In this document: one piece after another, positions 15,810-46,396 of the stretch
Position numbering within the stretch: position 1 is the first letter of the stretch
How the letters are laid out: the number at the start of each line of letters is the position of its first letter
NCBI RefSeq assembly: GCF_003201205.1
Contig: NZ_QICN01000012.1
Coordinates: 62,001 to 126,000, forward strand
DNA length: 64,000 nucleotides
From: Sinimarinibacterium flocculans
GTDB lineage: Bacteria; Pseudomonadota; Gammaproteobacteria; Nevskiales; Nevskiaceae
Direction of reading: 5' to 3'
The notes under the pieces: model-generated
Told to the model about the DNA's origin: nothing
What the model saw: the letters and a program-made list of their open reading frames with translations, nothing else
The model's database searches: none
Position numbers and translations under genes: made by a program

Positions 15810-16180
15810 GTCGCGCGCCCGCGCCCTCCCGCCGGCCGGGCCGGACGGGTGAGCGGTGCTCCGGATCGACGGCCGAAGGGGGGATTCATGGCGCGCAAGA
15901 CTAGCAGTCCACCCGGTCTGCGGACCGGGTTTCGCACCGATATGATGCGGGTCCGCACATGTGACCGGGCGTTCCTTATGCACAACGCAGCAGGATCACG
16001 GGCGGCCGACATAATCAAGTCCGACTTCCGTCAAAATCTCGTCATGTTCTTGCAAGCCAATGATTGTGATGATGATATTCCGGGAACTCGGACGATGATG
16101 GCGCGCTTGGGCCGCGCGGCCGATAAAGGCCACTCCGGCGACGGATCGCGCATCCACACAGTTATCCACAGGCTCTGAGC
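15810..16180. promoter_or_regulatory. divergent control region of the DMT exporter and priA with two DnaA boxes
   Basis: This 371-base gap is visibly AT-richer than its surroundings at 16005-16085. It contains two exact matches to the DnaA box TTATNCACA: TTATGCACA at 15976-15984 and TTATCCACA at 16162-16170, the second ending 10 bases before the priA ATG. On the minus strand TTGACG (16035-16030) and TATGTC (16013-16008), 16 bases apart, could drive the exporter. No RNA gene was recognised. Confidence 0.55.
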
Positions 16181-30575: not shown

Positions 30576-31235
30576 ATGTCTCGTCTTCGACCGTTCGCCT
30601 TCGCGGCGCTGCTCGCACTGCCGCTGGCCGCCTGCGCCGACATCAACGTCGGGCGCATCGACTCGCCCGGCTCGAGCTTCGACACCGTCAACGGCAGCAT
30701 CCGGGTGGGCGCGAACTCGGTCGTCGGCGACCTGGAGACGGTCAATGGCTCGGTGTTTCTCGGCGACGACAGCCGCGGCGAGGACCTGGAAACGGTCAAC
30801 GGCGACATTCACGTCGGCGACAACGTGCGCATCGACAGTGCCGAGACGGTGAACGGCGACATCGTCGCCGGTGTCGAGTTGCGCTGCAGCGGCGACCTGG
30901 AGACGGTCAATGGCGACATCCGCCTCGGCCGCGGCGCCGACGTCGACGAGAGCGTGGTCACCGTCAATGGCCGCATCCTGCTCGACGGCGCGCGCGTGCG
31001 CGGCGCGCTGGAGATCGTTTCCGGCGAGATCGAGACCGGGCGCGGCTCGAAGATCGGCGCGATCACCGTGCATGAGGCGCGCGGATCGAAGACCTCAAAA
31101 GGCAAGCCGCGCGTGACCGTCGGGGCCGACAGCGTCGTCGGGCCGATCGTGTTCGAGCAAGCCGGCGAGCTGCGCGTGCACCGCAGCGCCCGCGTCGGAA
31201 AGATCAGCGGCGTGGAGCCGGTCTACTTCGACTGA
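30576..31235 (+). CDS. repeat-rich lipoprotein, predicted beta-solenoid
   Basis: A 219-residue lipoprotein (signal ending LAA-Cys) built almost wholly of a ~20-24 residue repeat whose core reads ETVNGDI-hydrophobic-G. I count six T-V-N-G units plus a degenerate E-I-V-S-G unit, before a Lys-rich loop and a shorter second solenoid part. Regular V/I alternation and conserved Asn/Gly fit a right-handed beta-helix like bactofilin or DUF4097-type proteins. Its 3' end overlaps the convergent AraC gene by 13 bases. Role unknown; envelope location is inferred from the signal. Confidence 0.75.
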   Translation: MSRLRPFAFAALLALPLAACADINVGRIDSPGSSFDTVNGSIRVGANSVVGDLETVNGSVFLGDDSRGEDLETVNGDIHVGDNVRIDSAETVNGDIVAGVELRCSGDLETVNGDIRLGRGADVDESVVTVNGRILLDGARVRGALEIVSGEIETGRGSKIGAITVHEARGSKTSKGKPRVTVGADSVVGPIVFEQAGELRVHRSARVGKISGVEPVYFD

Positions 31236-32206
31236 GCCGCAGACGCAGCGCGATAGCCGCGCGGCGAGGCGTCGTAGCGCTGGCGGAACAGGCGCGCGAA
31301 GTGCCCCGGATCGTCGAAGCCCCAGTGCGCGGCGATCTCGGTGATCGAGTAGTGCGCCAGCGCCGGGTTCACCAGCGCCTGCCGGCAGCGCTCCAGGCGC
31401 TCGCCGCGCACGAAGTCGGCAACGCTGTGCGGCTGCTCCGCGAACAGCGCATGCAGGTAGCGCAGCGAGATGCGGTGTGCGGCCGCGATGCGCGCTGGCG
31501 TGAGTTCCGGATCGGCGAGGTGACCGCGGATGAAATCGCAGACCTGCTGGCGCAGCAGCTCGCGGCCCTGCGGCCGGCGCCGGCCGTCGCGATGCAGGCA
31601 GGACTGCGCGAACAGTTCCAGCGTGGGCGCGACGATGCCGCAGGCCTCGGAATCCGGCAGCGTCCACACCTCGCGGGTCAGGTTGCGCAGATGCCCGGCG
31701 AACAGTGCGCCGAGCCCGCTGCGGCCGTCCTGTGCCACGCCGACGTAATCGGCAGCGTTCGGCAGCACGGCGCGCAAGGCTGCTTCCGGCACCATCAGCG
31801 TGAGCTTGTCGAGCGGGCGTAGCACCTCGAAGTCCATGCGCCGCGCCGAGTCCCACAGCACAAACTGCCCGGCGCGCAGCGACACCTCGCGCCCGTCGAG
31901 GCGCAGGCGCTCGGCGCCGGAGGCGACGTAGAGGATGTTGTAGAAGTCGCCGGGCGTGCGCGCCAGTTCGGTGGCGGCCCGGTAGCCCGACAGCGGTTCG
32001 CAGCGGCAGCGCAGGAACCGCGCATCGCCGATGCGGCGCTGGCGCACACGTGCGCGAAAGTCCGGCTGGGCCCGCGTCTGCACCGACCACGGCAGGAAGT
32101 ATTCGCCGAGCACGCCGGCCCAGGCGTCGTAGCGCTGCTGCATCGGATGCTGCGTCGACGACCATTCCGACAGGGCGGCACCCGTCTGTGGGCTTGTGGC
32201 AGCCAT
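31223..32206 (-). CDS. AraC family transcriptional regulator (AraC-binding-like type)
   Basis: A 327-residue activator with an N-terminal cupin-like sensor (about 60-200, the AraC_binding_2 style, containing LRAGQFVLWDSARRMDFEV) and a C-terminal double helix-turn-helix (ELTPARIAAAHRISLRYLHALF, then YSITEIAAHWGFDDPGHFARLFRQRY). ATG 32206 follows a GGAGGAG site; an upstream start at 32455 would run into the divergent operon. It is divergent from the cupin/E1/lipoyl operon and probably controls it. Confidence 0.9.
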   Translation of the reverse strand: MAATSPQTGAALSEWSSTQHPMQQRYDAWAGVLGEYFLPWSVQTRAQPDFRARVRQRRIGDARFLRCRCEPLSGYRAATELARTPGDFYNILYVASGAERLRLDGREVSLRAGQFVLWDSARRMDFEVLRPLDKLTLMVPEAALRAVLPNAADYVGVAQDGRSGLGALFAGHLRNLTREVWTLPDSEACGIVAPTLELFAQSCLHRDGRRRPQGRELLRQQVCDFIRGHLADPELTPARIAAAHRISLRYLHALFAEQPHSVADFVRGERLERCRQALVNPALAHYSITEIAAHWGFDDPGHFARLFRQRYDASPRGYRAASAAQSK

Positions 32207-32262
32207 TGTCTCCTCCGGGACTCGCACCGGTGCCCGCAGTCTACACGCGCCCCGTCGCGGCG

Positions 32263-32291
32263 CCATGCACGCGTGTCGCCATGCGCGTGCA
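32263..32291. promoter_or_regulatory. candidate AraC operator between divergent genes
   Basis: A perfect inverted repeat TGCACGCG / CGCGTGCA (32266-32273 and 32284-32291, 10-base gap) is embedded in two direct copies of GCCATGC (starting 32263 and 32279, 16 apart). It lies between the AraC gene and the cupin operon. Confidence 0.4.
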
Positions 32292-32360
32292 CGCAAATCC
32301 AAGAACGCCGCCGCACCGGCGCCGTAGCCTTCGCCGACGGTGCGTACGAGGAGCCAGCCG

Positions 32361-32798
32361 ATGAGCGAGAACCTGACCGACGAAATGCTGCGCGAGACCG
32401 CGGCCCTGCCCTGGCACGCAGTCGTGCCCGGCATCGACTTTCGTCTGCTGTTCACCAGCGCCGAGACCGGCCGCTGGACCGTGATGTTCCGCTGCCAGCC
32501 CGGCAGCTTCTTTCCGCGTCACCGCCACTTCGGCGCCGGCGAGTACTACGTGCTCAAGGGCCGCATGGAGTACCGCATGGGCCGCGCACTCGCCGGTACC
32601 TGGGGCTACGAGCCGCTGGGCGCGATCCACGATCACACGGCCTTTCCCGAGTACACCGAGCTGCTGTTCACCAACCACGGGCCGGTGGCCTTCCTCGGCG
32701 AGAACGACGCGGTGACGGCGATGCTCGACCACAGCTATCTTGAAGGACTCGCCGCGGCAGGGGCGGCCGGGAACACGGAGGCACGCGATGCAGCCTGA
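32361..32798 (+). CDS. cupin domain protein (dihydroxyacetophenone dioxygenase-like)
   Basis: A 145-residue single-domain cupin. Motif 1 FFPRHRHFGAGEYYVLKGRMEY supplies two His and a Glu; motif 2 around IHDHTAFPEYTELLFTNHG supplies further His, so metal binding is likely. The pattern resembles cupins annotated as 2,4'-dihydroxyacetophenone dioxygenase-like, which cleave C-C bonds, but that activity is not proven. ATG 32361 follows GAGGAG. It overlaps the E1-alpha gene by 11 bases, so it is the first gene of the operon. Confidence 0.82.
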   Translation: MSENLTDEMLRETAALPWHAVVPGIDFRLLFTSAETGRWTVMFRCQPGSFFPRHRHFGAGEYYVLKGRMEYRMGRALAGTWGYEPLGAIHDHTAFPEYTELLFTNHGPVAFLGENDAVTAMLDHSYLEGLAAAGAAGNTEARDAA

Positions 32799-33771
32799 CG
32801 CGCGCCAGCGCCTGTGGATGTACCGGACCATGGTCAAGAGCCGCTGCTACGAGGACGCGATCAAGCCCGCCTACCTCGAAGGCAAGCAGCCGCTGTTCAA
32901 CATGGCCAAGGGCCCGATTCCCGGCGAGATGCACCTGTCGAGCGGACAGGAACCCTGCGCGGTTGGCGTCTGCGCACATTTGCGCACCGACGATGCGGTC
33001 ACGGCGACGCACCGCCCGCATCACGTCGCCATCGCCAAGGGCGTGAAACTGGACGCGATGACCGCGGAGATCTTCGGCAAGCGCCACGGGCTGTCCGGCG
33101 GTCGCGGCGGCCACATGCACTTGTTCGATCCGGAGGTGAACTTCTGCTGCTCCGGCATCATCGCGCAGGGCATGGGCCCGGCGGTGGGCGCCGCGCTGGC
33201 GGCCAGGCTGCGCGGGCGCGACGGCGTGGCGGTGTCGTTCATCGGCGAGGGCGCCGCCAACCAGGGCGCGTTCCACGAATCGCTCAATCTCGCTGCACTG
33301 TGGCAGGTGCCGGCGGTCTTCGTCATCGAGGACAACGCCTGGGGCATCTCGGTGGCGAAGAACGCCTCGACCGCGGTGCAGCGCAATGCCGAACGCGCCG
33401 CCGCCTACGGCATGCCCGGCGTCTTTGTGCCGGGCAATGACGCGGACGCGATCTTCGCCGCCGCGGGCGAGGCCATTGCCCGCGCGCGCCGCGGCGGCGG
33501 ACCGACGCTGATCGAGATCGAGACCGACCGTCTCGAAGGCCACTTCATGGGCGATGGCGAGCAGTACCGCCCCAGCGGTGAACTCGAACGCCTGCGCGCG
33601 CGCGACCCGATTCCGGCCTACCGCGAGCGCCTGCTGGCCGCCGGCCACGACGCCGGCGCCCTGGATCGCGCCGAGGACGAGGCGCGCGCCGAGGTCGAAC
33701 GCGCGTTCGCGTTCGCGCGTAACGACGTCTACCCGGAGGCCGCGGATGCGCTGACCGCGGTGTTCGCATGA
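32788..33771 (+). CDS. thiamine pyrophosphate-dependent dehydrogenase E1 alpha subunit
   Basis: A 327-residue TPP enzyme subunit of the acetoin/2-oxoacid dehydrogenase type. TPP/Mg motif: GEGAANQGAFHESLNLAAL and the distal Asn in VFVIEDNAWG. Other landmarks are MHLSSGQEPCAVG and GLSGGRGGHMHLFD. The start at ATG 32788 (QPDARQRLWMYRTMVKSR) matches the family N-terminus. It overlaps both the cupin gene and, through an ATGA, the E1-beta gene. No dihydrolipoamide acyltransferase catalytic domain or E3 is in the operon. Confidence 0.92.
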   Translation: MQPDARQRLWMYRTMVKSRCYEDAIKPAYLEGKQPLFNMAKGPIPGEMHLSSGQEPCAVGVCAHLRTDDAVTATHRPHHVAIAKGVKLDAMTAEIFGKRHGLSGGRGGHMHLFDPEVNFCCSGIIAQGMGPAVGAALAARLRGRDGVAVSFIGEGAANQGAFHESLNLAALWQVPAVFVIEDNAWGISVAKNASTAVQRNAERAAAYGMPGVFVPGNDADAIFAAAGEAIARARRGGGPTLIEIETDRLEGHFMGDGEQYRPSGELERLRARDPIPAYRERLLAAGHDAGALDRAEDEARAEVERAFAFARNDVYPEAADALTAVFA

Positions 33772-34799
33772 GTGCCCCGCACGCTTCGCCGCGCAGGTTG
33801 ACGATCGCCAAGGCGATCAGCGAGGCGCTGTCGCAGGCGATGAGCGACGATCCCTCGGTGCTGGTCATGGGCGAGGACATCGCCCAGCTCGGCGGCGTGT
33901 TCGGTACGACGCAGGGCCTGCTCGCCGCGCACGGACCGGAGCGCGTGCGCGACACGCCGATTTCCGAGACCGGCTTCATCGGTGCCGCGGTGGGCCTCGC
34001 GGCATCGGGCATGCGGCCGGTCGTGGAGCTGATGTTCGTCGACTTCTTCGGCGTCTGCTTCGACGCGATTTACAACCTCGCCGCCAAGCAGTCGTACTTC
34101 TCCGGCGGCCGCGTGCGCTGCCCGATGGTGCTGATGACCTCGGTCGGCGGCGGCTACGGCGATGCCGGTCAGCACTCGCAATGCCTGTACGCGAGCTTCG
34201 CGCACATGCCGGGCCTCAAGGTGGTGATGCCGTCGAATGCGCACGACGCCAAGGGCCTGATGCTCGCGGCGATCGCCGACGACAACCCGGTGGTGTTCAT
34301 GTTCCACAAGGCGTTGCAGGGCATGGGCTGGCTCGGCACGGTGCCGGGCTCGATCGTGCATGTGCCGCAGGAACGCTACACGCTCGACATCGGCCGTGCC
34401 GCGGTCGTGCGCGAAGGCGGCGACCTCACGCTCGTGGGCTGGGGTGCGACACTGCATCACGCACTCGACGCCGCGGGGCAGCTCGCACAGGACGGCATCG
34501 AGGCCGAGGTCATCGACCTGCGCACGCTCGCGCCGCTCGACCGCGACACGGTCTGCGCCTCGGTGGCACGCACCGGCCGGCTGCTGGTGGTCGACGACGA
34601 CTACCGCAGCTGCGGCGTCGCCGCCGAACTGATCGCCAGCGTCTGCGAACGCGGCGTCGCGCTGCGCATGGCGCCGCAGCGCGTCACCCACCCGAACGTG
34701 CCGATCCCGTTCTCGCCGGCGCTGGAGCATCCGCTGCTGCCGGACGCAGCGAAGATCGTCGCGCAGGTGCGCGCATCGATGAAGGCGGAGGTCGTATGA
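33768..34799 (+). CDS. 2-oxoacid/acetoin dehydrogenase E1 beta subunit
   Basis: A 343-residue partner of the upstream alpha subunit. It has the N-terminal MTIAKAISEAL-like helix, the catalytic-loop region VLVMGEDIAQLGGVFG with its Glu, GGGYGDAGQHSQ, and the C-terminal transketolase domain (LTLVGWGATLHHALDAA...DLRTLAPLDRDTV). Complete by length. Start and stop are both joined by ATGA overlaps to the alpha subunit and the lipoyl protein, so stoichiometric synthesis is expected. Substrate unknown. Confidence 0.92.
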   Translation: MSAPHASPRRLTIAKAISEALSQAMSDDPSVLVMGEDIAQLGGVFGTTQGLLAAHGPERVRDTPISETGFIGAAVGLAASGMRPVVELMFVDFFGVCFDAIYNLAAKQSYFSGGRVRCPMVLMTSVGGGYGDAGQHSQCLYASFAHMPGLKVVMPSNAHDAKGLMLAAIADDNPVVFMFHKALQGMGWLGTVPGSIVHVPQERYTLDIGRAAVVREGGDLTLVGWGATLHHALDAAGQLAQDGIEAEVIDLRTLAPLDRDTVCASVARTGRLLVVDDDYRSCGVAAELIASVCERGVALRMAPQRVTHPNVPIPFSPALEHPLLPDAAKIVAQVRASMKAEVV

Positions 34800-35032
34800 G
34801 CGAGGTGCGGATTCCGATGGAGGCCTTCGGCGACGACGGCGATGCGGTGATCTCCACCTGGCTGGTGCACGACGGCGAGACCGTGCAGCAGGGCGTGGTC
34901 ATCGCCGAGCTGATGGAGTCCAAGGCGATCGTCGAACTGATCGCGCCGGCGAGTGGCGTGCTGCGCATCGAAGTGGCGGCAGAGCAACCGGTCACGCGCG
35001 GCATGCGCGTCGCGAGGATCGAGCCGTCATGA
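34796..35032 (+). CDS. free-standing lipoyl-domain protein
   Basis: A 78-residue protein consisting only of a biotinyl/lipoyl domain: IPMEAFGDDGDAVISTWLVHDGETVQQG, then the modification hairpin AELMESKAIVEL with the acceptor Lys in E-S-K-A instead of the usual D-K-A, and the second half GVLRIEVAAEQPVTRGMRVARIE. There is no peripheral-subunit-binding or acyltransferase domain. It is coupled by ATGA overlaps to the E1-beta gene and to the LuxR-type gene. It may serve as a mobile acyl carrier for the E1 pair. Confidence 0.88.
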   Translation: MSEVRIPMEAFGDDGDAVISTWLVHDGETVQQGVVIAELMESKAIVELIAPASGVLRIEVAAEQPVTRGMRVARIEPS

Positions 35033-35307
35033 TCGACCGCGGCACACAGGGAGCGGACTGGCCGGAGACCGCTGCAGACAACTGGGCGGGGCGCGAACCG
35101 CTGACCGACCGCGAACTCGAGGTGCTGCGCTACGTCGCCGGCGGCTGGTCGAATCGCGAGATCGCCCGCGCGCTGGCGCTCACCGATCACACCATCAAGT
35201 GGCACCTGAAGAACATCTACGGCAAGCTCGGCGTCAACGGCCGCGTCTGCGCCGTGCTCGCGGTACGCGAGCAGGCGCAGCGCACGGCAACGGCTACAGG
35301 GTCTTGA
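35029..35307 (+). CDS. LuxR-type helix-turn-helix stub protein
   Basis: A 92-residue protein containing just a GerE/LuxR DNA-binding domain: PLTDRELEVLRYVAGGWSNREIARALALTDHTIKWHLKNIYGKLGVNGRVCAVL. The first ~25 residues are not a receiver or ligand domain. It starts inside the lipoyl gene stop (ATGA overlap), so it is part of the same operon. Its 3' end overlaps the convergent cytochrome gene by 14 bases. Probably a transcription regulator acting without its own sensor; target unknown. Confidence 0.85.
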   Translation: MIDRGTQGADWPETAADNWAGREPLTDRELEVLRYVAGGWSNREIARALALTDHTIKWHLKNIYGKLGVNGRVCAVLAVREQAQRTATATGS

Positions 35308-37756
35308 GGTACTCGATGATCGCGCGCCGTTCGGCATCGGTGAGCGCATCGGAGAACGTGTGCCCGCCGTTGCCGTTGCCGAGGATGCGCGTGTCGTAGA
35401 CCAGGCGCTTGTCGACGGCGCCCGGCAGCGGGTCCGGAATGTTGACGATGCCGGTCCAGCTCACCAGTCCGTTGAGGAAGTTCTGCGTCATCTGCACCAG
35501 CGACGGCCCCTCGTCGTCGACCGGATTGCAGTTGGCCACCGCACTGCCCGGAATATCGGTGCAGGCCAGCGCCGTGTGCTTCCAGCCGATGGCTTCGGTA
35601 TCGAAGGCCTGGGCAAACCGCTGGTCGAAGCCCCTGATGCCCTGATCCTCCTGCAACTGGCGCTGCCAGATCGCCGGGCGTTGCGACGAATCGAGCACCT
35701 GCTCCAGTGTCGGCACCGAGCCGTTGTGGAAGTACGGCGCCGTGGCCCACACGCCGTACAGCGGCGGCGCCTGGTAGCCGATCACGCCCTTCTCCCAGCC
35801 GCAGACGCCCATCGGCCGCAGTTCGAGCGGATACATGTCGTCGAGCAGTTCGGTCAGCGGATCCTTGTCGCCGGGCGCGACATAGCCTTCGGCGCCGTCG
35901 TTGTAGCCCCAGAAGGTCGTGTCCCAGCGCTCGCGCAGCGTCGGCGTGAGCATGTCGGAACGCGCCGCATCGGTGCCAATGACGTCCAGCGGCGAGATGT
36001 GCCCGGCCACGCCTTCGAGTTCCGGCGTCTGCAGGTAGGCCGGGTCCTCGACGTAGCGCGGCGAGTAGGCGCCGTGGCAGCTCGCGCAGGAGCCGTTGCC
36101 GCCCAGCGGCGCCGGAGCGCCGGCATTGGCCTCCTCGGCCCACAGGTCTTTGGTGTGGAACAGCACCGCGCCCTGTTCGGCCAGCGCAGTGTCGATCTCG
36201 CCCGGCCACTGGGGCGAGCGCAGCGACAGGAAGAAGGCTTCGAGATCCTGGTCGTACTGCTCGATGCGATTGCGATAGAGATCGCCGCTGGCCGACACCA
36301 GCTCCTCGAACTCACCGGGACCGGCGGCCATGATAATGCGCGTGGAGTCGTTGGAGACGCCGGCGTCGAAGAACTTGCGCGGCCGCGAACCCATGTTCCA
36401 CCACGGCGGCGTGTCCTGCGTGTGCGCGAGGGGATGGGCGACATCGACGACACCGGTGACGCCGACGATGGTCTTCAGCGGATTCGGATTCAGGCCGAGC
36501 GAATCGAGGTCGAGCACGGTGACGAGAAACTCGAACGCGCCGACGGCGTTGTTCTGCCCTCGCTGCTTGATGCCGATGTTGAACAGCGAATCCACCGACA
36601 GCGGCGGCAGCAGCGTCGAGAAGTAGGTGCCGGCGAACGGCGACGCATCCTGGCCGGAGATGACCACGTCGTAGTTGTTGTTGCCGAGCCCGAGATTGTC
36701 GAGGCCGATCAGGTTCTCGCCCTGCGCCGGCTCGCCGATCTGCCCGCCATGGCACTGGAAGCAGGCCGAGGTGCCGATCTCGCCGGTCCACTGGCCGTTG
36801 TCGTCCTTGAGCTGGCGCAGCCCCAGCGGCAGCTGCCCGGAACCGCCGTCCGTCGCCATCGGGTCTTCGCCGGGTAGCGGGTAGGGGTTGTCGAACGGCG
36901 CATGGTTGAGGCCGTAGCGCAGCGTGTAGAGCTGGTCGAAGTTGTCCGGGCGCCCGGGCAGGCCCCACTTCTGCCAGGTGTTGTTGTAGTCCTCGGCGCT
37001 CGTCGCGCCGACCGGCAGCTCGTCGATGAGGAACGCGAGGCCGCGATCGCGCCGCGCGCGGTATTCGCCGCAGGTCTGCGCCTGCCGCTCGGCCTCGGGC
37101 ATGTGCGCGTGGCAGTCCTGCCAGTAGGCGTTGTAGAACACCGCGAGGTCGGTCGCGATGGTGCCCGGCTGCACCAGGGTGCGCGGGTCGCGCGGCAGCA
37201 GCGCGCTGTCGTCCTTGCCTTCGCAGTAGCGGGCCCAGACGTGCTGCGCGCGCTTGCTGCCGAGCAGCGGGGCATCCTCGGTGACCGGGCCGCCGCCGGC
37301 ACCGTCGAGACAGCCGGCCGGGTCCTCGAAACAGTCGAGCATCACGGCCATGTCCTTGTAGGCCGCGCTGCCGGCCGGCCACGGATAGCCGCCGGAATGG
37401 GACTTCTCGTCCTGCTGCGAGGGCATCAGCAGGATGCGGGATACCGGGTTGTTGCCGCCGAGCGCTTCCCACGACGCGCGCAGCAGGGCGTAGTCGTTGC
37501 CGGGCTCGGGACCGAGCATCAGCAGTCGCCCGTCATCGACGTCGGCGACGCCGCCGGGGACGTGGCAGGTGCGGCAGAACGCGAGCCGCGGCTCGATGCG
37601 CTTGGCGTAGAAGTCCTGCGGGCCGGAGTAGCTGCCGCCTCCGGGCGCCGGGCCTTCGCCGCCGCCACCGGCCTGGCCATCGTATTCCCCGGCGCAGCCG
37701 GCCACGGCGATGGCCAGCGCGGCGACAGCCGGGCGCAGACAGCGGCTCAGTTTCAT
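35294..37756 (-). CDS. triheme c-type cytochrome lipoprotein, RoxA-like layout (copy 1)
   Basis: An 820-residue exported lipoprotein (AVAG-Cys, Cys21) with three heme c sites: CRTCH (61-65), CFQCH (332-336) and CASCH (557-561). Other features are PPWWNMG, NGSCASCHGAYSPRYV and GYQAPPLYGVWATAPYFHNGS, a layout reminiscent of RoxA/di-heme peroxidase-related oxygenases. Those usually have two hemes and ~680 residues, so this is a larger relative. ATG 37756 is used; GTG 37762 is an alternative with better ribosome-site spacing. A paralogue lies at 43994-46396. Substrate unknown. Confidence 0.85.
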   Translation of the reverse strand: MKLSRCLRPAVAALAIAVAGCAGEYDGQAGGGGEGPAPGGGSYSGPQDFYAKRIEPRLAFCRTCHVPGGVADVDDGRLLMLGPEPGNDYALLRASWEALGGNNPVSRILLMPSQQDEKSHSGGYPWPAGSAAYKDMAVMLDCFEDPAGCLDGAGGGPVTEDAPLLGSKRAQHVWARYCEGKDDSALLPRDPRTLVQPGTIATDLAVFYNAYWQDCHAHMPEAERQAQTCGEYRARRDRGLAFLIDELPVGATSAEDYNNTWQKWGLPGRPDNFDQLYTLRYGLNHAPFDNPYPLPGEDPMATDGGSGQLPLGLRQLKDDNGQWTGEIGTSACFQCHGGQIGEPAQGENLIGLDNLGLGNNNYDVVISGQDASPFAGTYFSTLLPPLSVDSLFNIGIKQRGQNNAVGAFEFLVTVLDLDSLGLNPNPLKTIVGVTGVVDVAHPLAHTQDTPPWWNMGSRPRKFFDAGVSNDSTRIIMAAGPGEFEELVSASGDLYRNRIEQYDQDLEAFFLSLRSPQWPGEIDTALAEQGAVLFHTKDLWAEEANAGAPAPLGGNGSCASCHGAYSPRYVEDPAYLQTPELEGVAGHISPLDVIGTDAARSDMLTPTLRERWDTTFWGYNDGAEGYVAPGDKDPLTELLDDMYPLELRPMGVCGWEKGVIGYQAPPLYGVWATAPYFHNGSVPTLEQVLDSSQRPAIWQRQLQEDQGIRGFDQRFAQAFDTEAIGWKHTALACTDIPGSAVANCNPVDDEGPSLVQMTQNFLNGLVSWTGIVNIPDPLPGAVDKRLVYDTRILGNGNGGHTFSDALTDAERRAIIEYLKTL

Positions 37757-38072
37757 GTTCACGTTGTCGGACTCTCCTCCGCACTCGGCGCCCGCACCGA
37801 GGGGCACAGGCCTGCGGCGTATGCGCCGCTCTCATCGTGGCCCTACGTTACCTGCGCCGACCCCTCCGTTCCACTCGGATTGCCGGACGCCGGCGCGCAG
37901 CCGCAAGCGGATGAATTGCCAAGAACAATCCGCCCGCGGCCGTGCGGATCGCGCCGGCCTACTCGTGAAAGCGATGGTGACCTTTCCCGGCGACGCGGCG
38001 GGTGGATATAGTCGCCCCTGTCCGGCATGCCCGTGCCGGTAGTCCAATCGCGAGCAGGAGGAGAATCTGCCG
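37757..38072. promoter_or_regulatory. divergent control region, cytochrome copy 1 and acyl-CoA ligase
   Basis: This 316-base gap holds no credible gene. A -10-like TATAGT lies at 38007-38012 in front of the ligase, and AGGAGGAGA precedes its start. On the minus side, GGAGGAGAG sits before the cytochrome. I see no clear -35, operator palindrome or RNA. Confidence 0.4.
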
Positions 38073-39810: not shown

Positions 39811-40107
39811 ATGGTCGAGCTCATCAGGAGCGCCACCTTCGACGCTTGGCTTACCGGACTGCGTGACGCGCAAACCCGTGCTCGCACCCTGACGCGGCTG
39901 GATCGTCTGGCGACCGGCAATCCCGGTGACGTCAAGCCAATCGGCGAAGGCCTCTCCGAGATGCGCATCGATTTCGGCTCCGGATACCGGGTGTACTTCA
40001 TGCGACGCGGCTCGCTCGTGATCGTCCTGCTCTGCGGCGGCGACAAGGCCTCCCAGCCACGAGACATCAAGCTGGCCAGGCGCATTGCTGCCGACTGGAA
40101 GGACTGA
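39811..40107 (+). CDS. RelE/HigB-type killer protein
   Basis: A 98-residue toxin of the phage-derived Gp49/HigB-like addiction killer group: TFDAWLTGLRDAQTRARTLTRLDRLATGNPGDVKPIGEGLSEMRIDFGSGYRVYF. The R-I-D-F-G-x-G-Y-R-V-Y-F strand and a late CGGDK loop are typical. The toxin precedes its antitoxin, the order usual for this group. The promoter upstream predicts a leaderless mRNA starting at this ATG. Base composition is a little less GC-rich than the flanks. Confidence 0.9.
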   Translation: MVELIRSATFDAWLTGLRDAQTRARTLTRLDRLATGNPGDVKPIGEGLSEMRIDFGSGYRVYFMRRGSLVIVLLCGGDKASQPRDIKLARRIAADWKD

Positions 40108-40110
40108 GGC

Positions 40111-40404
40111 ATGGTCAAGGAAACATTCAGCCGCTACGACAGCGCCGACTATCTGAAGACCGAGGAAGACATCGTCGCTTACCTCGACGCGGTGATGGAG
40201 GAGGGCGGCGACGACCCGGCTTACATCGCCCATGCGCTCGGCGTGATCGCGCGCGCGCGCAACATGAGCCAACTGGCGCGCGATACAGGCCTGACCCGAG
40301 AAGGCCTGTACAAGGCGCTGTCGGGCGAAGGCAATCCGAGTTTCGCGACCGTGCTCAAGGTCGCTCGCGCGCTAGGCCTGAAGCTGAAGCTGGCTCCAGC
40401 CTGA
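40111..40404 (+). CDS. helix-turn-helix addiction antidote protein
   Basis: A 97-residue antitoxin: acidic N-terminal half (YLKTEEDIVAYLDAVMEEGGDDPAYIAHALGVIARA) and a Cro/CI-like helix-turn-helix (MSQLARDTGLTREGLYKALSGEGNPSFATVLKVARALGLKL). It starts three bases after the toxin stop. It is the probable protein that binds the 18-base inverted repeat at 39763-39810. Confidence 0.9.
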   Translation: MVKETFSRYDSADYLKTEEDIVAYLDAVMEEGGDDPAYIAHALGVIARARNMSQLARDTGLTREGLYKALSGEGNPSFATVLKVARALGLKLKLAPA

Positions 40405-40583: not shown

Positions 40584-41276
40584 CTACTCGATGGACAGCG
40601 GCAGCACCGTCGACACCGGAAACGTCATCGCAAAACGCGGCACCGCGACCGACAGCGGCGACGAGGCGCCGGCGAGATCCGGGAACAGTGCGGGATTCGA
40701 ACGCGCCTCGAGCAGACGCGCCGGCCTGATCCAGCCGTTTGCCGACGGCGTGTAGATGAAGCTGCTGCCGTCGCGGTGCTGGCCGAGCGTTCGCCAGGCA
40801 CGCGGCACCAGCGCAGTCGAAAACGGCAGCGGCAGCGGCCAGCTGCGGTAGCGCAGCCCGGCGATCAGCTCGCCGTCCTGGCGCACGGTGACTTCGTCGA
40901 TGCCGTCGTCGCCGTAGCGCACGTCGAACCGGGCGAGATCCTTGGGAATGCCCCAGTTGCGCTGGCCGTTGACGACGCTGTCCATCGACGACACGAAGAT
41001 GCGGCTGATCGACAGGTGACGTCGGCCGTCCTCGAAGGGGAAGCTGCCGGGAATGAACAGCAGCTCGTGGTACGGCCCGACATCCGAGTGCGCGTAGTCG
41101 ACGAACATCATCCACGCCGTACGCGAACCCGAGCGCCGGCCGGCGAGGCTGGGCGGCACGAAGGCGTCCTGCGCCGTGCTGTTCCCGGGAAAGCGCAGCA
41201 GGCTGATGTAGCCGCGACCCCGCAGCCGCCAGGGCGCTGGCGCATCGGTGATCTGGGCGGGCGGGCGGGCGTGCAT
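40584..41276 (-). CDS. acetoacetate decarboxylase-like protein
   Basis: A 230-residue ADC-fold protein: WRLRGRGYISLLRFP, YHELLFIPGSFPF, ISRIFVSSMDSVVNGQRNWGIPKDLARFDV and an aromatic/Pro-rich second half. In true acetoacetate decarboxylases the active site reads P-K-K; here it is P-K-D, so one Lys remains and its neighbour is Asp. A decarboxylase or a related aldol/hydratase activity are both possible. It lies 79 bases downstream of the flavin monooxygenase on the same strand. Confidence 0.78.
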   Translation of the reverse strand: MHARPPAQITDAPAPWRLRGRGYISLLRFPGNSTAQDAFVPPSLAGRRSGSRTAWMMFVDYAHSDVGPYHELLFIPGSFPFEDGRRHLSISRIFVSSMDSVVNGQRNWGIPKDLARFDVRYGDDGIDEVTVRQDGELIAGLRYRSWPLPLPFSTALVPRAWRTLGQHRDGSSFIYTPSANGWIRPARLLEARSNPALFPDLAGASSPLSVAVPRFAMTFPVSTVLPLSIE

Positions 41277-41355
41277 CGGCGTGCGCTCGTTCGTCAGGTG
41301 GATGCGCAGTGTGTCGCGATCACTGCGAGAAATGGGGTTTACCGCTCCGGGCGGA

Positions 41356-42855
41356 TCAGGCTGCCTTGGGCACGGCCACCGGTCGCGTGACCCCGCGGTA
41401 GTCCTCGAGCACGGGCTGTCTGAGCCGCCGCGAGAATTCCGTCATCGAGCCGACCCAGTTGTTGGTGTTGCGACCGTCCGCGGTCTTGTACCAGCTCTGG
41501 CAGTCGCCGCTGTAGGTCGTGCCTTCGCTGCGTCGCTGCATCTCGGCGGCATAGGCCGCCTGTGCTTCGGCGCGCACGTCGAGCCAGTCCCAGCCGTGCG
41601 CCTCGCGCGCCTTGAGCAACCGCGTCACATAGCGCTGCTGGCGTTCGAGCATGTAGATGATCGAACCCGAGCCGACATTGGTGTTCGGCCCATAGAGCAT
41701 GTAGAAGTTCGGGAAGCCCGACACCGCCATGCCGTAGTAGGCCTCGGCGCCGTGATTCCAGACCTGGTGCAGATCCTTGCCGCCGAGGCCGCGCACGCGC
41801 ATCGGCGTCAGGAACTGCGTGGCCTTGAAGCCGGTGCCGTAGATGATGGCGTCGACCTCGCGCAGCCTGCCGTCAGCCGTGCGTACACCGCTCTCGGTGA
41901 TCTCGCTGATCGCGTCGTCCACGACCTCGACGTTCGGGCGCGCCAGCGCCGGCAGCCAGGCATTGGTCAGCAGGATGCGCTTGCAGCCGATGGGGAAGTC
42001 CGGGCGCAGCTTGGCGCGCAGGGCCGGATCGCGCACCTGCCACCAAGCCTGCAGCTTGGAGATCGACGTCACCAGCCAGGCGAGCGGCCGGTTGCCGTTG
42101 TACGCCGCCGCGAGCAGCTCGCAGATGAGGAAGATGCGCAGCCGGTCGAGGTCGTGAACGAAGGGCACGGTGTCGAGCAGCCAGCGCTCGAAGCGCGAGA
42201 ACTGCTTTTCCACCTTCGGGAAGGTCCAGCCCGGCGAGCGCTGGAACAGGTGCATCCGGCCGACCTGTCTGGCGATCTCCGGCACGAACTGCACGGCGCT
42301 GGCGCCGGTACCGATCACGGCGACGGTCTTGCCGTTCAGATCGTAGTCGTGATCCCAGTGGGACGAGTGGAAGGTCTTGCCGGCAAAGCGCTCGCGTCCG
42401 GGGATGTCCGGATACGCCGGCTGGTGCAGCTGTCCGACCGCGCTGACGACGCTTTCGGCCTCGACCGTGCTGCCGTCGGCGAAGGTCACCGTCCACAGGC
42501 CGAGCGCCTCGTCGAACGTCATCGCGGTGGCTTCCATGCCGTAGCGCACATGCCGCTCGAAGTCGTACTTCTTCGCCACGTGATGCTGGTAGGCGAGGAT
42601 CTCGCCCTGCCGGGCGTAGCGCCACGCCCAGGGGTAGTGCGGCTCGAAAGAGTACGAGTAGAAGTGCGAGGGCACGTCGCAGCCGCAGCCCGGATAGGTG
42701 TTCTCGCGCCAGGTGCCGCCGAGGTCCTGCGCCTTCTCGAAGATCGCGAAGTGCTCGATGCCGGACTGCTTGAGCGAGTACGCCATGCCCAGGCCGCCGA
42801 AGCCGCTGCCGATGATCGCGACCTTCAGGACCGCCTTGTTGCTGCCGTCGGCCAT
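41356..42855 (-). CDS. flavin-containing monooxygenase, Baeyer-Villiger type
   Basis: A 499-residue FAD/NADPH enzyme. First Rossmann motif IIGSGFGGLGMAYSL, Baeyer-Villiger fingerprint FAGKTFHSSHW (F-x-G-x-x-x-H-x-x-x-W), second Rossmann VIGTGASAVQFVPEIA. Also typical are LGGTWRENTYPGCGCDVPSH and the late TGFKAT. Such enzymes insert oxygen next to ketones to give esters. ATG 42855 follows GGAGGAG; the frame continues upstream to 43191, overlapping the divergent regulator, and is rejected. The downstream partner is an ADC-like protein. Confidence 0.92.
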   Translation of the reverse strand: MADGSNKAVLKVAIIGSGFGGLGMAYSLKQSGIEHFAIFEKAQDLGGTWRENTYPGCGCDVPSHFYSYSFEPHYPWAWRYARQGEILAYQHHVAKKYDFERHVRYGMEATAMTFDEALGLWTVTFADGSTVEAESVVSAVGQLHQPAYPDIPGRERFAGKTFHSSHWDHDYDLNGKTVAVIGTGASAVQFVPEIARQVGRMHLFQRSPGWTFPKVEKQFSRFERWLLDTVPFVHDLDRLRIFLICELLAAAYNGNRPLAWLVTSISKLQAWWQVRDPALRAKLRPDFPIGCKRILLTNAWLPALARPNVEVVDDAISEITESGVRTADGRLREVDAIIYGTGFKATQFLTPMRVRGLGGKDLHQVWNHGAEAYYGMAVSGFPNFYMLYGPNTNVGSGSIIYMLERQQRYVTRLLKAREAHGWDWLDVRAEAQAAYAAEMQRRSEGTTYSGDCQSWYKTADGRNTNNWVGSMTEFSRRLRQPVLEDYRGVTRPVAVPKAA

Positions 42856-42918
42856 GTTCTCCTCCACCTGTACCAGGGTTGCCGTGCCGCATCTTGTCAG
42901 CTCGACGCCCGCTGCGGG

Positions 42919-42947
42919 ATGACGGCGCTGGCCAATCGATTGATAAT
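42919..42947 (+). promoter_or_regulatory. promoter of the AraC gene, leaderless placement
   Basis: ATGACG (42919-42924) and GATAAT (42942-42947) are 17 bases apart. The predicted start of transcription falls at 42954-42955, the AraC start codon. The -35 overlaps an alternative upstream ATG, arguing against that start. Confidence 0.5.
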
Positions 42948-42954
42948 TCCGGCC

Positions 42955-44007
42955 ATGCCGCACAACGTCGTCCGCCGCACCGTCGTCAGCGCACAGCTGC
43001 TCGTGCAGCTCGCGGCCGAACACGGCCTGGCGCACGAGGCCGCGCTGCGGGACACCGGCATCGATGGACCGACGCTGATCGACCCGAACGCCGAGATCGC
43101 GCCGGCGCAGGAACTGCAACTCGTGCGCAATCTCGTCGCGCACCTGGGTCATGTCCCGGGCCTGGGGCTCGACGCCGGTCTGCGCTACCACCTGTCCGCC
43201 TACGGCATCTGGGGCTTCGCGCTGCTGAGCAGCCCGAATTTCCGCGCCGTGGCCGACGTCGTGTCGCGCTTTCTCGATCTGTCCTACGCCTTCGTGCGCT
43301 TTCGTCTCGGCGACGACGGCAGCGCCTTCTGGGTCGACATGGACGACGACGAGATTCCCGGCGACGTCCGTCAGTTCCTGCTGGAACGCGACTTCGCCGC
43401 CTGCTGCAACGTCATCCGCGAACTGCGGCCCGGCGGCCTGCCGATCCGCGAGCTGCGTTTTCGCTGCGCGGCGCCGGACTATGCCGCGCGCTTTGCCGAG
43501 ATTGGCGGCGTCGTGCCGGTCTTCGGCGCCGAGCGCAACGGCGCCCGCTTCGATCTCGCGGACGTCGACGCGCCGCTGCCGCAGGCCAATCCGCTGATGT
43601 CGCGCATGTGCCTGGAACAGTGCGGGCAGTTGCTCTCACGCCGGCAGGCGCGTACCGGCCTCGCCGGCCAGGTGCGCGAACGCCTGCTGCAGACACCCGG
43701 CGTGCTGCCCGATGCCACCACCGTCGCCCGCGATCTGCTGATGTCGGAGCGCAGCCTGCGCCGGCGGCTCGAGGCCGAGGGCACGGCGTTCCGCGCGCTG
43801 AGCGACGAGGTACGCCAGACCTTGGCCGAGGAACTGCTGACCACCGCCGACCTCAAGCTAGAAGAAGTCGCCCAGCGCCTCGGCTACTCGGAACCCGCCA
43901 GCCTGATTCACGCCTTCAAGCGCTGGAAGGGCATGACACCGACCGCGTATCGCGCACAGCGGCGCACCTCGGGACAGGACGGGCCTCCGCGCACTACAGC
44001 GTCTTGA
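42955..44007 (+). CDS. AraC family regulator with arabinose-binding-like N-terminus
   Basis: A 350-residue regulator of the OruR/Arabinose_bd type: long N-terminal sensor (about 1-210, including RYHLSAYGIWGFALLSSPNF) and a C-terminal double helix-turn-helix with LPDATTVARDLLMSERSLRRRLEAEG and LKLEEVAQRLGYSEPASLIHAFKRWKG. It is divergent from the monooxygenase/ADC-like pair, its likely target. ATG 42955 is preferred because its promoter overlaps the in-frame ATG 42919. Its 3' end overlaps cytochrome copy 2 by 14 bases. Confidence 0.9.
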   Translation: MPHNVVRRTVVSAQLLVQLAAEHGLAHEAALRDTGIDGPTLIDPNAEIAPAQELQLVRNLVAHLGHVPGLGLDAGLRYHLSAYGIWGFALLSSPNFRAVADVVSRFLDLSYAFVRFRLGDDGSAFWVDMDDDEIPGDVRQFLLERDFAACCNVIRELRPGGLPIRELRFRCAAPDYAARFAEIGGVVPVFGAERNGARFDLADVDAPLPQANPLMSRMCLEQCGQLLSRRQARTGLAGQVRERLLQTPGVLPDATTVARDLLMSERSLRRRLEAEGTAFRALSDEVRQTLAEELLTTADLKLEEVAQRLGYSEPASLIHAFKRWKGMTPTAYRAQRRTSGQDGPPRTTAS

Positions 44008-46396
44008 GGTACTCGATGAGCGCGCGGCGCTCCTGATCGGTGAGCACGGCGGTGAAGTCGTGGCCCTGGTTGCCCTGGCCATACATCGCCGTGTTGTAGA
44101 TCTTGCGGTCCTCGAGCTGTTCGTTGCGCGTGGCGCCGAAGCCGACGTACCAGGTGTAGGGGTTGCTGCCGCTGAGCAGGTTCAGCAGCAGCGACAGGTT
44201 CGGGTCGTCCGGATGGTTCGACGGATTGCAATCGAGGTAGGGCGTGGTGCCTTCGTCGCCGCAGGCGAGCACGTCGTACTTCCAGCCCAGCCGCTCGCGG
44301 TCGTAGGCGCGCGCGAAACGCGTGTCGTAGCCCATCACCACCTGGCCGAACTGGTCCGGCCGCGTCGGCGTCGACACGCGCCGCCAGATCGTCGGGCGAT
44401 CGGCAGGCTGGAGCACGCCCCAGACGGTGGGCACCGCGCCGTTGTGGAAGTACGGCGCACTGGCCCAGACGCCGTACAGCGGCGGCGCGAGATAGCCGAC
44501 CTCGCGGCCCTGGCGGATCTCGGCACGGTTCTGGGTGCTGCAGTCGAGATCCGGATCGGCGTTGATCGTTTCCGGATAGGCGAAGAAGTTGTCCTTGCCG
44601 TGCTGCTCGGCCGCCTCGCTGTCGCTGTCGACGCGCGCCGGATCGGTGCCGATCAGGTCGCGCGGCACGATGTAGCTGGCGATGCCTTCGAGCGCCGGCG
44701 TGTCGAGAAAGGCCGGATCGTTGACGTAGCGCGGCGCATAGGCGCCGTGGCAGCTCGCACAGGAGCCGTTGCCGGCCTCGGGGCGCGGCACCGGGTTGTT
44801 CAGCTCCGCGGCCCACAGGTCCTTGGCGTGGAACAGCACCGCCCCCTGTTCGGCCAGCGCGGTATCGACCGCTTGCGGCCACGCCGGCGCCTTCAGCGAA
44901 CTGATGTAGGTATCGCCGGCACGCACATGCTGCCTGACCCAGTCGAAGCCGCCGGGCCCCGGACCCGGCAGGTAGAAGCCGAAGTCCGAGCGCAGCGCGT
45001 CCATCGCCAGGAAGCCGTCCTGGAACTTCACCGGACGATGACCCATGTTCCACCATGCAGGCGCGTCGATCGAACCGCCGTTGGGCGTGAGCAGCGCGAA
45101 GCCGAGGAAGTCCGGATCGAGCGGCCGGATGTCCTGCGCGATCAGGAACACGATGATCTGCAGCGCCAGTGCGTTGTTGGTGCCGCGCGTCTTGCCGACG
45201 ACCACCGGGAGCGGCAGCGGCACGCCGGGCACCGCGCTGCCGCCGAGATCGATGTCGATCTGGCCGAACTCGCTGAGGCTGTTGCTGCCACCGAAGACCA
45301 CGCCCAGACCTTCGCCCTCGTCGGGATCACCGACCTTGCCGCTGTGGCACACATGGCAGTTCACGCCGATGTTGCCGGTCCAGGTGCCGTCGCTGCCGCG
45401 CAGCTGCGTGAAGCCGACCGGCAACTGGCCGCTGCCGCCGTCGCTCGCGTCCGGATTTTCGCCGGGCATCGGATACGGATTGCGCGCAGTGCCCAGCGCC
45501 ATGCCGTAACGCTCGGCGGCAAGCTGATCGAAGTTGTCCGGCCGCCCCGGCAGGCCCCAGGCCTGCCACAGCAGGTTGTAGTCGGCGGCGCTGAAGTTGC
45601 CGTCGAGGCCGCTGCCGCCGAAGTACCAGCCGGCGCCGATCGCGCCGTCGCCCTTGATCAGCGCCTCGCCGCGCGCCCACTGGTCGCGCAGTTCGCCGCA
45701 GGTCGTCGGTGCGTCTTCCTCCCCGACCGGGACGTCCTCGCGATGGCAGTCCTTCCAGTACGCATTGAAGAACACCGCCTTGCCGGCGTTGACGCCGGGC
45801 ACGACCAGCGAGCGCGGGTCGGGCGGCAAGGCGACGGAATCGTCCCGGCCTTCGCAGAAGTCGAACCAGGCGTGACCGCCGCGAGCGCTGCCGAGCAGCG
45901 GCGCGTCCGCCACCACCGGCCCGCCGCCGGTGCCGTCCAGACATCCCGCGGGATGCTCGAAACACGCCAGCATCACCGCCATGTCCGCATAGGCGGCGCT
46001 GTCGACCGGCCACGGCGCGCCGCCACTGTGGCTGCGCGCGTCGCGGCCCGACGGCATCAACAGGATGCGCGACTCGGCCTGATCGCCGACGCCGTTGCCG
46101 CCGAGTGCTTCCCACGAGGCGCGCAGCAGCGGCTGGTCGTTGCCGGGTTCGACGCCCAGCATGAACAGGCGCCCGTCCTCGACGTCGGCGACGCCGCCGG
46201 GCACGTGGCAGGTGCGGCAGAACGCCAGCCGCGGTTCGATGCGCTGCTTGTAGAACGCGTCGATGCTGCCCGCGTTGCCGCCGGGCGCCGGGCCGCCGCT
46301 GCCGGCGCCGGGGGCACCCTCGTAGTCGCCGGCGCAGCCTGCCGCCATCAGGGCGATCAGCAGTGCGGCCGTGCGCCGCGCGATGCTGCGCGTCAT
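43994..46396 (-). CDS. triheme c-type cytochrome lipoprotein, RoxA-like layout (copy 2)
   Basis: An 800-residue paralogue of the protein at 35294-37756, with the same order: lipoprotein signal (MAAG-Cys, Cys21), CRTCH (60-64), CHVCH (347-351), CASCH (546-550), PAWWNMGHRP, GYLAPPLYGVWASAPYFHNG and the same last residues EYLKTL. Central parts diverge (different insertions between hemes 2 and 3), so the two copies are old duplicates or have different substrates. GGGAGAGAC precedes the ATG. It ends inside the AraC gene and is divergent from a TetR gene. Confidence 0.85.
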   Translation of the reverse strand: MTRSIARRTAALLIALMAAGCAGDYEGAPGAGSGGPAPGGNAGSIDAFYKQRIEPRLAFCRTCHVPGGVADVEDGRLFMLGVEPGNDQPLLRASWEALGGNGVGDQAESRILLMPSGRDARSHSGGAPWPVDSAAYADMAVMLACFEHPAGCLDGTGGGPVVADAPLLGSARGGHAWFDFCEGRDDSVALPPDPRSLVVPGVNAGKAVFFNAYWKDCHREDVPVGEEDAPTTCGELRDQWARGEALIKGDGAIGAGWYFGGSGLDGNFSAADYNLLWQAWGLPGRPDNFDQLAAERYGMALGTARNPYPMPGENPDASDGGSGQLPVGFTQLRGSDGTWTGNIGVNCHVCHSGKVGDPDEGEGLGVVFGGSNSLSEFGQIDIDLGGSAVPGVPLPLPVVVGKTRGTNNALALQIIVFLIAQDIRPLDPDFLGFALLTPNGGSIDAPAWWNMGHRPVKFQDGFLAMDALRSDFGFYLPGPGPGGFDWVRQHVRAGDTYISSLKAPAWPQAVDTALAEQGAVLFHAKDLWAAELNNPVPRPEAGNGSCASCHGAYAPRYVNDPAFLDTPALEGIASYIVPRDLIGTDPARVDSDSEAAEQHGKDNFFAYPETINADPDLDCSTQNRAEIRQGREVGYLAPPLYGVWASAPYFHNGAVPTVWGVLQPADRPTIWRRVSTPTRPDQFGQVVMGYDTRFARAYDRERLGWKYDVLACGDEGTTPYLDCNPSNHPDDPNLSLLLNLLSGSNPYTWYVGFGATRNEQLEDRKIYNTAMYGQGNQGHDFTAVLTDQERRALIEYLKTL

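What the first reader, a model, noticed from the sequence alone, without database searches (positions are those of the whole stretch)
32206..35307. Compact E1 alpha/E1 beta/free lipoyl domain operon without E2 or E3
Seen: cupin, E1-alpha, E1-beta, a 78-residue lone lipoyl domain and a lone LuxR-type HTH, all with overlapping frames, divergent from an AraC gene. Known: acetoin and 2-oxoacid dehydrogenases need an E2 acyltransferase carrying its own lipoyl domain. Inference: the stand-alone lipoyl protein may act as an acyl carrier handing acyl groups to an external E2 or directly to another acceptor, with the cupin producing the 2-oxo or acyloin substrate. This could be a poorly described dehydrogenase variant.
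Basis: partly seen in the sequence, partly recalled or inferred. Interest (0 to 1): 0.75.

Follow-up and report, generated by a model that had tools for sequence, protein, structure and literature searches.

The report
Split dehydrogenase with free lipoyl carrier
This operon encodes the front half of a vitamin-dependent enzyme that breaks carbon bonds, plus a tiny free-standing carrier protein but no dedicated second enzyme; its relatives keep the parts of this machine as separate proteins, and some of them, like this one, seem to do without the second enzyme.

Summary
In detail: divergent AraC, cupin, E1-alpha, E1-beta, a 78-aa lipoyl protein (Lys43) and a lone LuxR HTH; the five co-directional frames overlap by 4-11 bp; no E2 or E3 in the operon. 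It is not a quirk of one genome. In 80 of the 80 best E1-beta relatives kept by the scan a free lipoyl domain follows E1-beta. In 55 of 80 a lone E2 catalytic core without lipoyl domain comes next, and 73 of 80 loci hold a lipoate-ligase-like gene: the E2 is split into separate proteins. In 25 of 80, and in the window, no core follows; the family's own E2-core profile found none in 26 distinct E2-less genomes, the window's included, against 335-354 bits in four positive controls. The E2 state changes at least three to four times on E1-beta trees; gain or loss is not resolved. The cupin is closest to acetylacetone dioxygenase and keeps its three metal histidines. Best reading: E1 loads an acyl group on the free carrier, which another complex's E2 unloads and shared E3 reoxidises; free-acid release without CoA is not excluded. 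New variant of a known kind; substrate unknown.

The parts
31223..32206 (-). AraC-type regulator (best NCBIfam match FeaR, below its cut-off), divergent from the operon
   Evidence: an AraC gene of the same cluster lies in 10 of 24 loci without E2 core
32361..32798 (+). Cupin_7 protein, 145 aa, acetylacetone-dioxygenase-like; predicted metal ligands His54, His56, His90
32788..33771 (+). E1-alpha subunit, 327 aa, with ThDP-type motif GEG...EDN (motif name recalled)
33768..34799 (+). E1-beta subunit, 343 aa, invariant His136 in GQHSQ (catalytic role recalled from the family)
34796..35032 (+). Free-standing lipoyl protein, 78 aa
34922..34924 (+). Codon of the predicted lipoylation site Lys43
   Evidence: lysine kept in 81 of 81 rows
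35029..35307 (+). Solitary LuxR/GerE helix-turn-helix protein, 92 aa, overlapping the lipoyl gene by 4 bp; no counterpart in the related loci

Best explanation
The operon is a stripped-down form of a dispersed-domain lipoate system. In its fuller form E1-alpha/E1-beta, a free lipoyl carrier, a lone E2 acyltransferase core and a lipoate ligase are separate proteins (shown by gene content). Here the E2 core and the ligase are missing, so the lipoyl protein is presumably modified by the general LipB/LipA route (inferred; the genome's only PF21948 protein is LipB). ThDP-bound E1 cleaves an alpha-dicarbonyl, 2-oxo acid or acyloin produced upstream by the cupin and transfers the acyl group reductively to lipoyl-Lys43 of the free carrier (inferred from family and conserved residues); the acyl group is moved to CoA by the E2 of another complex acting in trans, and shared dihydrolipoamide dehydrogenase reoxidises the carrier (both inferred).
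For: Free lipoyl domain behind E1-beta in 80 of 80 relatives, lone E2 core right behind it in 55 of 80, ligase in 73 of 80 loci (first count by clustering; families by Pfam on representatives). RefSeq-derived annotation shows E1-alpha, E1-beta, lipoyl, E2 in a row on plasmids of Phaeobacter (with lipoate-protein ligase), Sphingomonas, Rhodococcus (with lipA), two Halobaculum and Natrialba. No family E2 core in 26 distinct E2-less genomes including the window's (best other score 176.5 bits, four controls 334.8-353.6). 104 invariant columns in 79 E1-alpha rows and 108 in 81 E1-beta rows. One PF21948 protein in the window's genome, LipB by NCBIfam, and two Lpd genes over the cut-off. An even draw of 397 Pseudomonadota genomes gave six further loci at E 1e-125: 6 of 6 with lipoyl and ligase, 3 of 6 with E2 core (one of the six, G437, is the genome of L104).
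Against: No experiment; lipoylation, substrate and acceptor are unknown. Trans-acylation by the E2 of PDH, OGDH or branched-chain complexes is not shown, and those E2s carry their own lipoyl domains. The window's genome also has a lone AceF-type E2 core that could be the partner. The window's lipoyl protein lacks the LW motif common near the N-terminus and has E-S-K where 18 of 25 rows of the E2-less group have V-E-K. Several E2-less genomes are MAGs or drafts, so absence of a core is not proof.
Confidence: 0.45

Rival explanations
1. The acylated carrier is not discharged to CoA at all: the acyl-lipoyl thioester is hydrolysed (or passed to a small thiol) to give a free carboxylic acid, which an acetate/propionate-CoA ligase then activates. 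E1 plus carrier plus E3 would act as an NAD-linked oxidase of a carbonyl compound.
For: The E2 state changes at least three to four times on E1-beta trees while E1 and lipoyl protein stay, and 21 of 25 E2-less operons' loci keep the ligase. An AMP-ligase of the PrpE/Acs type lies in 7 of 24 loci without E2 and 1 of 56 with E2 (type tested on L041 and L047 only). In the closest relative, L047, the genes run TonB receptor, SDR, SDR, cupin, PrpE/Acs-like ligase, E1-alpha, E1-beta, lipoyl.
Against: That ligase goes with the cupin rather than with the missing E2: none of the 12 E2-less loci without cupin has a member of its cluster in the stretch held, and two cupin loci with E2 (L045, L046) carry another AMP ligase. 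Six of the seven ligase loci are sphingomonads. No thioesterase was sought.
Confidence: 0.2
2. The lone AceF-type E2 core at G000:C1:376913-377653 is the physiological partner of the window's lipoyl protein.
For: It is the only complete E2 in the genome without a lipoyl domain in frame and keeps a DHRVING motif. One other E2-less genome, G110, also has a lone core of another type beside a second lipoyl ORF (L188), and G115 has one E2 without a lipoyl match (L178).
Against: In relative G003 this core's match lies 57 bp behind the lipoyl match of a different E1-alpha/E1-beta/lipoyl set, and in G008 in front of that set; the window's genome has that other set on contig C4. The window's lipoyl and E1-beta are absent, at E 1e-6 and 1e-110, from all 10 same-genus genomes searched, three of which (G003, G008, G010) have the core at 59-76% identity. 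It scores 159 bits with the window family's E2-core profile, like ordinary E2s.
Confidence: 0.15
3. A decaying import: a horizontally acquired operon that lacks E2 and ligase and no longer works.
For: Close E1-beta relatives are nearly absent from related genomes (2 of 100 at E 1e-110, the own genome being one); ligase and E2 are missing; the lipoyl protein is divergent.
Against: All five frames are intact, overlap tightly and keep the residues that are invariant in the family; the same E2-less state occurs in 25 other genomes.
Confidence: 0.08

Closest known systems
2-oxoacid dehydrogenase complexes (PDH, BCKDH) and acetoin dehydrogenase AcoABCL
   Same: Same E1-alpha and E1-beta families; lipoyl domain of E2 type; E3 presumably shared
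   Different: E2 is either a separate lipoyl protein plus a bare catalytic core, or missing; E1 scores lie below every NCBIfam cut-off shown; no AcoC-type E2 (NF011457) at E 1e-40 in the window's genome
LbpA of Hdr-like sulfur oxidation with its own lipoate ligase (PMC6067878, passages seen)
   Same: Small free lipoyl protein with a lipoate-ligase gene beside it in most relatives
   Different: LbpA is GcvH-like and most keep two cysteines; here the domain is E2-like, the neighbour is E1, and no cysteine position is shared by more than 5 of 81 rows
Glycine cleavage H protein
   Same: Precedent for a free lipoyl carrier between separate enzymes
   Different: Different partner and subfamily; GcvH is a weak PDB match (5.7e-4) behind E2 lipoyl domains
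Haloarchaeal E1/lipoyl clusters (Haloferax volcanii third 2-oxoacid dehydrogenase operon, van Ooyen and Soppa 2007)
   Same: From memory that operon encodes E1 subunits and an unattached lipoyl domain; Halobaculum and Natrialba plasmids show E1-alpha, E1-beta, lipoyl, E2 in a row
   Different: About 54-56% identity in E1-beta for those three plasmids; the paper itself was not held, only its title in reference lists
Acetylacetone dioxygenase Dke1 (cupin part)
   Same: 33% identity, TM-score 0.80, all three His ligands kept
   Different: Substrate unknown; 2,4'-dihydroxyacetophenone dioxygenase also lies close by fold (TM-score 0.76)

Membership tests
Classical 2-oxoacid dehydrogenase complex | E1 of the E1_dh / transketolase-type families with conserved ThDP-type motif and histidines | tested here: met
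   (motif names recalled)
Classical 2-oxoacid dehydrogenase complex | Dedicated E2 with lipoyl domain, binding domain and catalytic core in one chain | tested here: not met
   None in the operon; the lipoyl domain is a separate 78-aa protein
Acetoin dehydrogenase (AcoABCL) | AcoC E2 (NF011457) in the genome | tested here: not met
   No match at E 1e-40 in G000
Acetoin dehydrogenase (AcoABCL) | Cleavage of acetoin | not testable with these tools
   Needs purified enzyme
Dispersed E1/lipoyl/E2-core/ligase family described here | E1-alpha, E1-beta and free lipoyl gene together | tested here: met
   Window; lipoyl behind E1-beta in 80 of 80 and E1-alpha in 79 of 80 relatives
Dispersed E1/lipoyl/E2-core/ligase family described here | Lone E2 core | tested here: not met
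   No core of this family in the window's genome; right behind the lipoyl gene in 55 of 80 relatives
Dispersed E1/lipoyl/E2-core/ligase family described here | Lipoate ligase in the locus | tested here: not met
   The window genome's only PF21948 protein is LipB; 73 of 80 relatives have the ligase
LbpA lipoate-binding proteins | GcvH-like sequence with two conserved cysteines | tested here: not met
   feature from passages of PMC6067878
Acetylacetone dioxygenase (Dke1) | Three-histidine metal site (His62, His64, His104) | tested here: met
   His54, His56, His90 in 16 of 16 cupin rows, the window's included; residues from passages of PMC4019311
Acetylacetone dioxygenase (Dke1) | Oxygenolytic cleavage of a beta-diketone | not testable with these tools
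   Needs assay

The most novel reading that the evidence does not exclude
A lipoate-dependent carbon-bond oxidation that makes no acyl-CoA: a beta-diketone (or 1,3-diol oxidised by the SDRs) is cut by the Dke1-like cupin into an acid and a 2-oxoaldehyde; E1 cleaves the hydrated 2-oxoaldehyde or an acyloin equivalent, loads the acyl group on the free carrier, water or a thiol releases it as an acid, E3 recovers NADH, and a PrpE-like ligase activates the acids. E2 would then be dispensable, which would explain why it comes and goes in the family.
Probability: 0.15. Interest if true: 0.85.

Novelty: new variant of a known kind. Interest (0 to 1): 0.55.

Why it matters
Textbook 2-oxoacid and acetoin dehydrogenases tether the lipoyl arm to the E2 core so that it can swing between active sites. 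Here relatives from Pseudomonadota, an actinomycete and halophilic archaea keep lipoyl domain and E2 core as separate proteins, and members such as the window's have no core of their own family at all. That makes it directly testable whether tethering, or a dedicated E2, is needed, and it points to a catabolic system and a set of lipoate ligases for which I found no description in the searches made.

Tried and rejected
Rubber degradation: the neighbour is a RoxC homologue (NF051462, 1301 bits), but it converges on the operon from the other strand, no homologue of it lies in the 80 related loci, and the review of which I saw passages says that two RoxC proteins tested had no rubber activity (PMC10837239). 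Rejected as a functional link.

Acetoin dehydrogenase: considered because loci with an E2 core often carry sigma-54 regulators that I called AcoR-like (39 of 56), GMC oxidoreductases (37 of 56) and zinc dehydrogenases (18 of 56), whereas none of the 24 loci without E2 has any of these (families tested on single representatives; the name AcoR is mine). A canonical AcoB for comparison was sought near AcoC; the two AcoC-like places in G111 had no full-length E1-beta of this family in the stretches fetched (L240 held a short 26-bit match at its edge), so that comparison was not made.

Sulfur-type LbpA: rejected on sequence. Biotinyl protein: the fold cannot exclude it; the profile match to E2 lipoyl domains and the ligases beside relatives argue against it.

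The free-acid rival looked strong at first from the ligase counts; closer reading showed that the ligase follows the cupin, not the missing E2.

Repeated loss of E2: I can say only that the state changes. (with three distant outgroup rows, L049 labelled E2-containing) needs at least 8 changes, 4 forced by strongly supported branches; (no outgroup, L049 labelled E2-less) needs 7 and 3. Both are quick trees without bootstraps and with long branches, and warns that the window's join with L047 may be false. Direction is open: distant relatives in Halobaculum, Natrialba and Rhodococcus have the core, which favours loss, but the 56% relative in G031 shows neither core nor ligase in the roughly 1.2 kb held behind its lipoyl gene.

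Caveats on counts: genes were found mechanically. Two counts of E2 differ by design: 56 of 80 loci hold a core, but in L049 it belongs to a second set nearby, so 55 of 80 operons have it directly behind. The ligase count rose from 72 (clusters) to 73 (profile). Several mechanical lipoyl reading frames are longer than 77 aa (up to 136 aa, and 285 aa in L051 and L055). Of the 25 E2-less operons' genomes, 23 were given to (not those of L112 and L049; the genome of L049 does hold a family core, L191); to these were added the own genome, G403, G385 and G437, the last being the same genome as G113. In one search, L175 and L195 are cut by contig ends, L178 and L188 have no lipoyl match in frame, and L198 and L201-L204 are fragments.

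Full report
What is there. The window holds AraC (31223-32206, minus), then on the plus strand cupin (32361-32798), E1-alpha (32788-33771), E1-beta (33768-34799), a 78-aa lipoyl protein (34796-35032) and a 92-aa LuxR-type HTH protein (35029-35307); the plus-strand neighbours overlap by 11, 4, 4 and 4 bp. Pfam supports each assignment. NCBIfam places E1-alpha and E1-beta near pyruvate dehydrogenase subunits but below the cut-offs (274 of 394 bits; 312 of 454 bits; a subfamily at 315 of 321 bits). A model of the lipoyl protein (pLDDT 94) is a lipoyl/biotinyl-type barrel with Lys43 between two strands.

Relatives. A scan of one genome per species with E1-beta gave 518 confirmed relatives, of which the best 80 were kept. 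In 80 of 80 a lipoyl domain begins 3-163 bp behind the E1-beta match, never in one frame with an E2 core. The modified lysine is kept in 81 of 81 rows. Clustering the neighbours showed two more partners, tested on representatives and recounted with profiles: a lone E2 catalytic core of about 235 aa matching only PF00198, directly behind the lipoyl gene in 55 of 80, and a lipoate-ligase-like protein (PF21948) in 73 of 80 loci. So in most of these members the E2 is in separate pieces. Annotated plasmids show E1-alpha, E1-beta, lipoyl domain-containing protein and 2-oxo acid dehydrogenase subunit E2 in a row in Phaeobacter (lipoate-protein ligase next), Sphingomonas, Rhodococcus (lipA next), two Halobaculum and Natrialba (six hits chosen from 20 listed of 947 records).

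E2-less members. In 25 of 80 operons, as in the window, no core follows. Searching 28 genomes, 24 of them with such an operon, with PF00198 gave mostly E2s of ordinary size, nearly all with a lipoyl domain in frame (exceptions under Tried and rejected). A sharper test used the family's own E2-core profile: four positive controls scored 334.8-353.6 bits, while the best match in 26 distinct E2-less genomes, the window's included, was 176.5 bits, the level of ordinary E2s. On E1-beta trees the E2 state needs 7-8 changes at the fewest, 3-4 of them forced by strongly supported branches; whether these are gains or losses is open. The window lies nearest to L047, also E2-less (93% SH-aLRT with L047 and L037; possibly a long-branch join). 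In an even draw of 397 Pseudomonadota genomes the family appears in 7 at E 1e-125, the window's own being one; the six others all have lipoyl protein and ligase, three with and three without the E2 core.

The window's genome. It has five PF00198 places: three with a lipoyl domain in frame, one lone AceF-type core at C1:376913 and one fragment. The lone core seems to belong to a second, distantly related split set: the genome has another E1-alpha/E1-beta/lipoyl cluster on C4 (E1-beta 42% identical), and in relatives G003 and G008 that kind of set and the core are neighbours. The window's own set is absent from 10 of 10 same-genus genomes at the thresholds used, which suggests horizontal gain. 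There is one LplA/LipB-family protein, LipB by NCBIfam, so the ligase usual in the family is missing too; two Lpd genes exceed the cut-off.

The cupin branch. 15 of 80 loci have the cupin: 12 without and 3 with E2 (L045, L046, L091). The order AraC (divergent), cupin, E1-alpha, E1-beta, lipoyl of the window recurs in two loci filed as Dongia mobilis and in Rhodospirillaceae R-7. The closest relative, L047, runs TonB receptor, SDR, SDR, cupin, propionate/acetate-CoA-ligase-like, E1-alpha, E1-beta, lipoyl. The cupin's best solved relative is acetylacetone dioxygenase 3bal (2.7e-20; TM-score 0.80), with 2,4'-dihydroxyacetophenone dioxygenase close by fold; the three histidines that bind metal in Dke1 (PMC4019311, passages seen) are invariant in 16 of 16 cupin rows. 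Dke1 makes acetate and methylglyoxal from acetylacetone (same passages). This fits, but does not show, a pathway in which a diketone is cut and the two halves go to the CoA ligase and to E1.

Mechanism. Shown: gene content, invariance of ThDP-type motif, E1 histidines and lipoyl lysine, E2 in separate pieces or missing. Inferred: lipoylation by LipB/LipA, reductive acylation of the free carrier by E1, discharge by an E2 of another complex, reoxidation by Lpd. Rivals are discharge as free acid, service by the lone C1 core, and decay.

Literature. The nearest precedent is LbpA with its own lipoate ligase in sulfur oxidation (PMC6067878, passages; lipoate assembly in PMC10332631, passages). PMC3904984 (passages) names single-domain lipoyl proteins as a class in archaea. 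PMC3543383 (passages) describes a classical acetoin dehydrogenase gene cluster. From memory, van Ooyen and Soppa 2007 reported an unattached lipoyl domain with E1 genes in Haloferax volcanii; only its title was seen. The listings of searches showed no description of the bacterial system; they cover open-licence PubMed Central papers, and some lists were cut (20 of 176, 17 of 19, 8 of 19).

Verdict. A real, conserved arrangement for which I found no description; the window is an E2-less, ligase-less member. New variant of a known kind, interest 0.55.

Noticed in passing
window 35294-37807 (-) and 43994-46396 (-): Two rubber-oxygenase-like haem proteins, the first a strong RoxC match (1301 bits), the second with a RoxA-like cytochrome domain; RoxC function is unknown (PMC10837239, passages).
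   Followed up: partly
window 39811-40404 (+): Gp49-like and HI1420-antidote-like pair, probably a toxin-antitoxin module.
   Followed up: no
window 40584-43152 (-): Acetoacetate-decarboxylase-like protein beside an FMO-like monooxygenase, possibly ketone catabolism.
   Followed up: no
L205/L022 (G000:C4 about 15050-17277) and L019 6914-7657 (G000:C1:376913-377653): A second split system in the same genome: E1-alpha/E1-beta/76-aa lipoyl protein beside a gene that looks Rieske-type (by eye), and an AceF-type lone E2 core on another contig; neighbours in G003 and G008.
   Followed up: partly
L206 (G000:C1:789385-789663): A fragment of a lone E2 core (122-aa frame) near a reading frame that looks P450-like by eye.
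   Followed up: no
L258 5017-7075 (Rhodococcus opacus pR1CP1): Lipoyl synthase lipA directly behind lipoyl protein and E2, a different lipoylation gene than the ligase of the proteobacteria.
   Followed up: no
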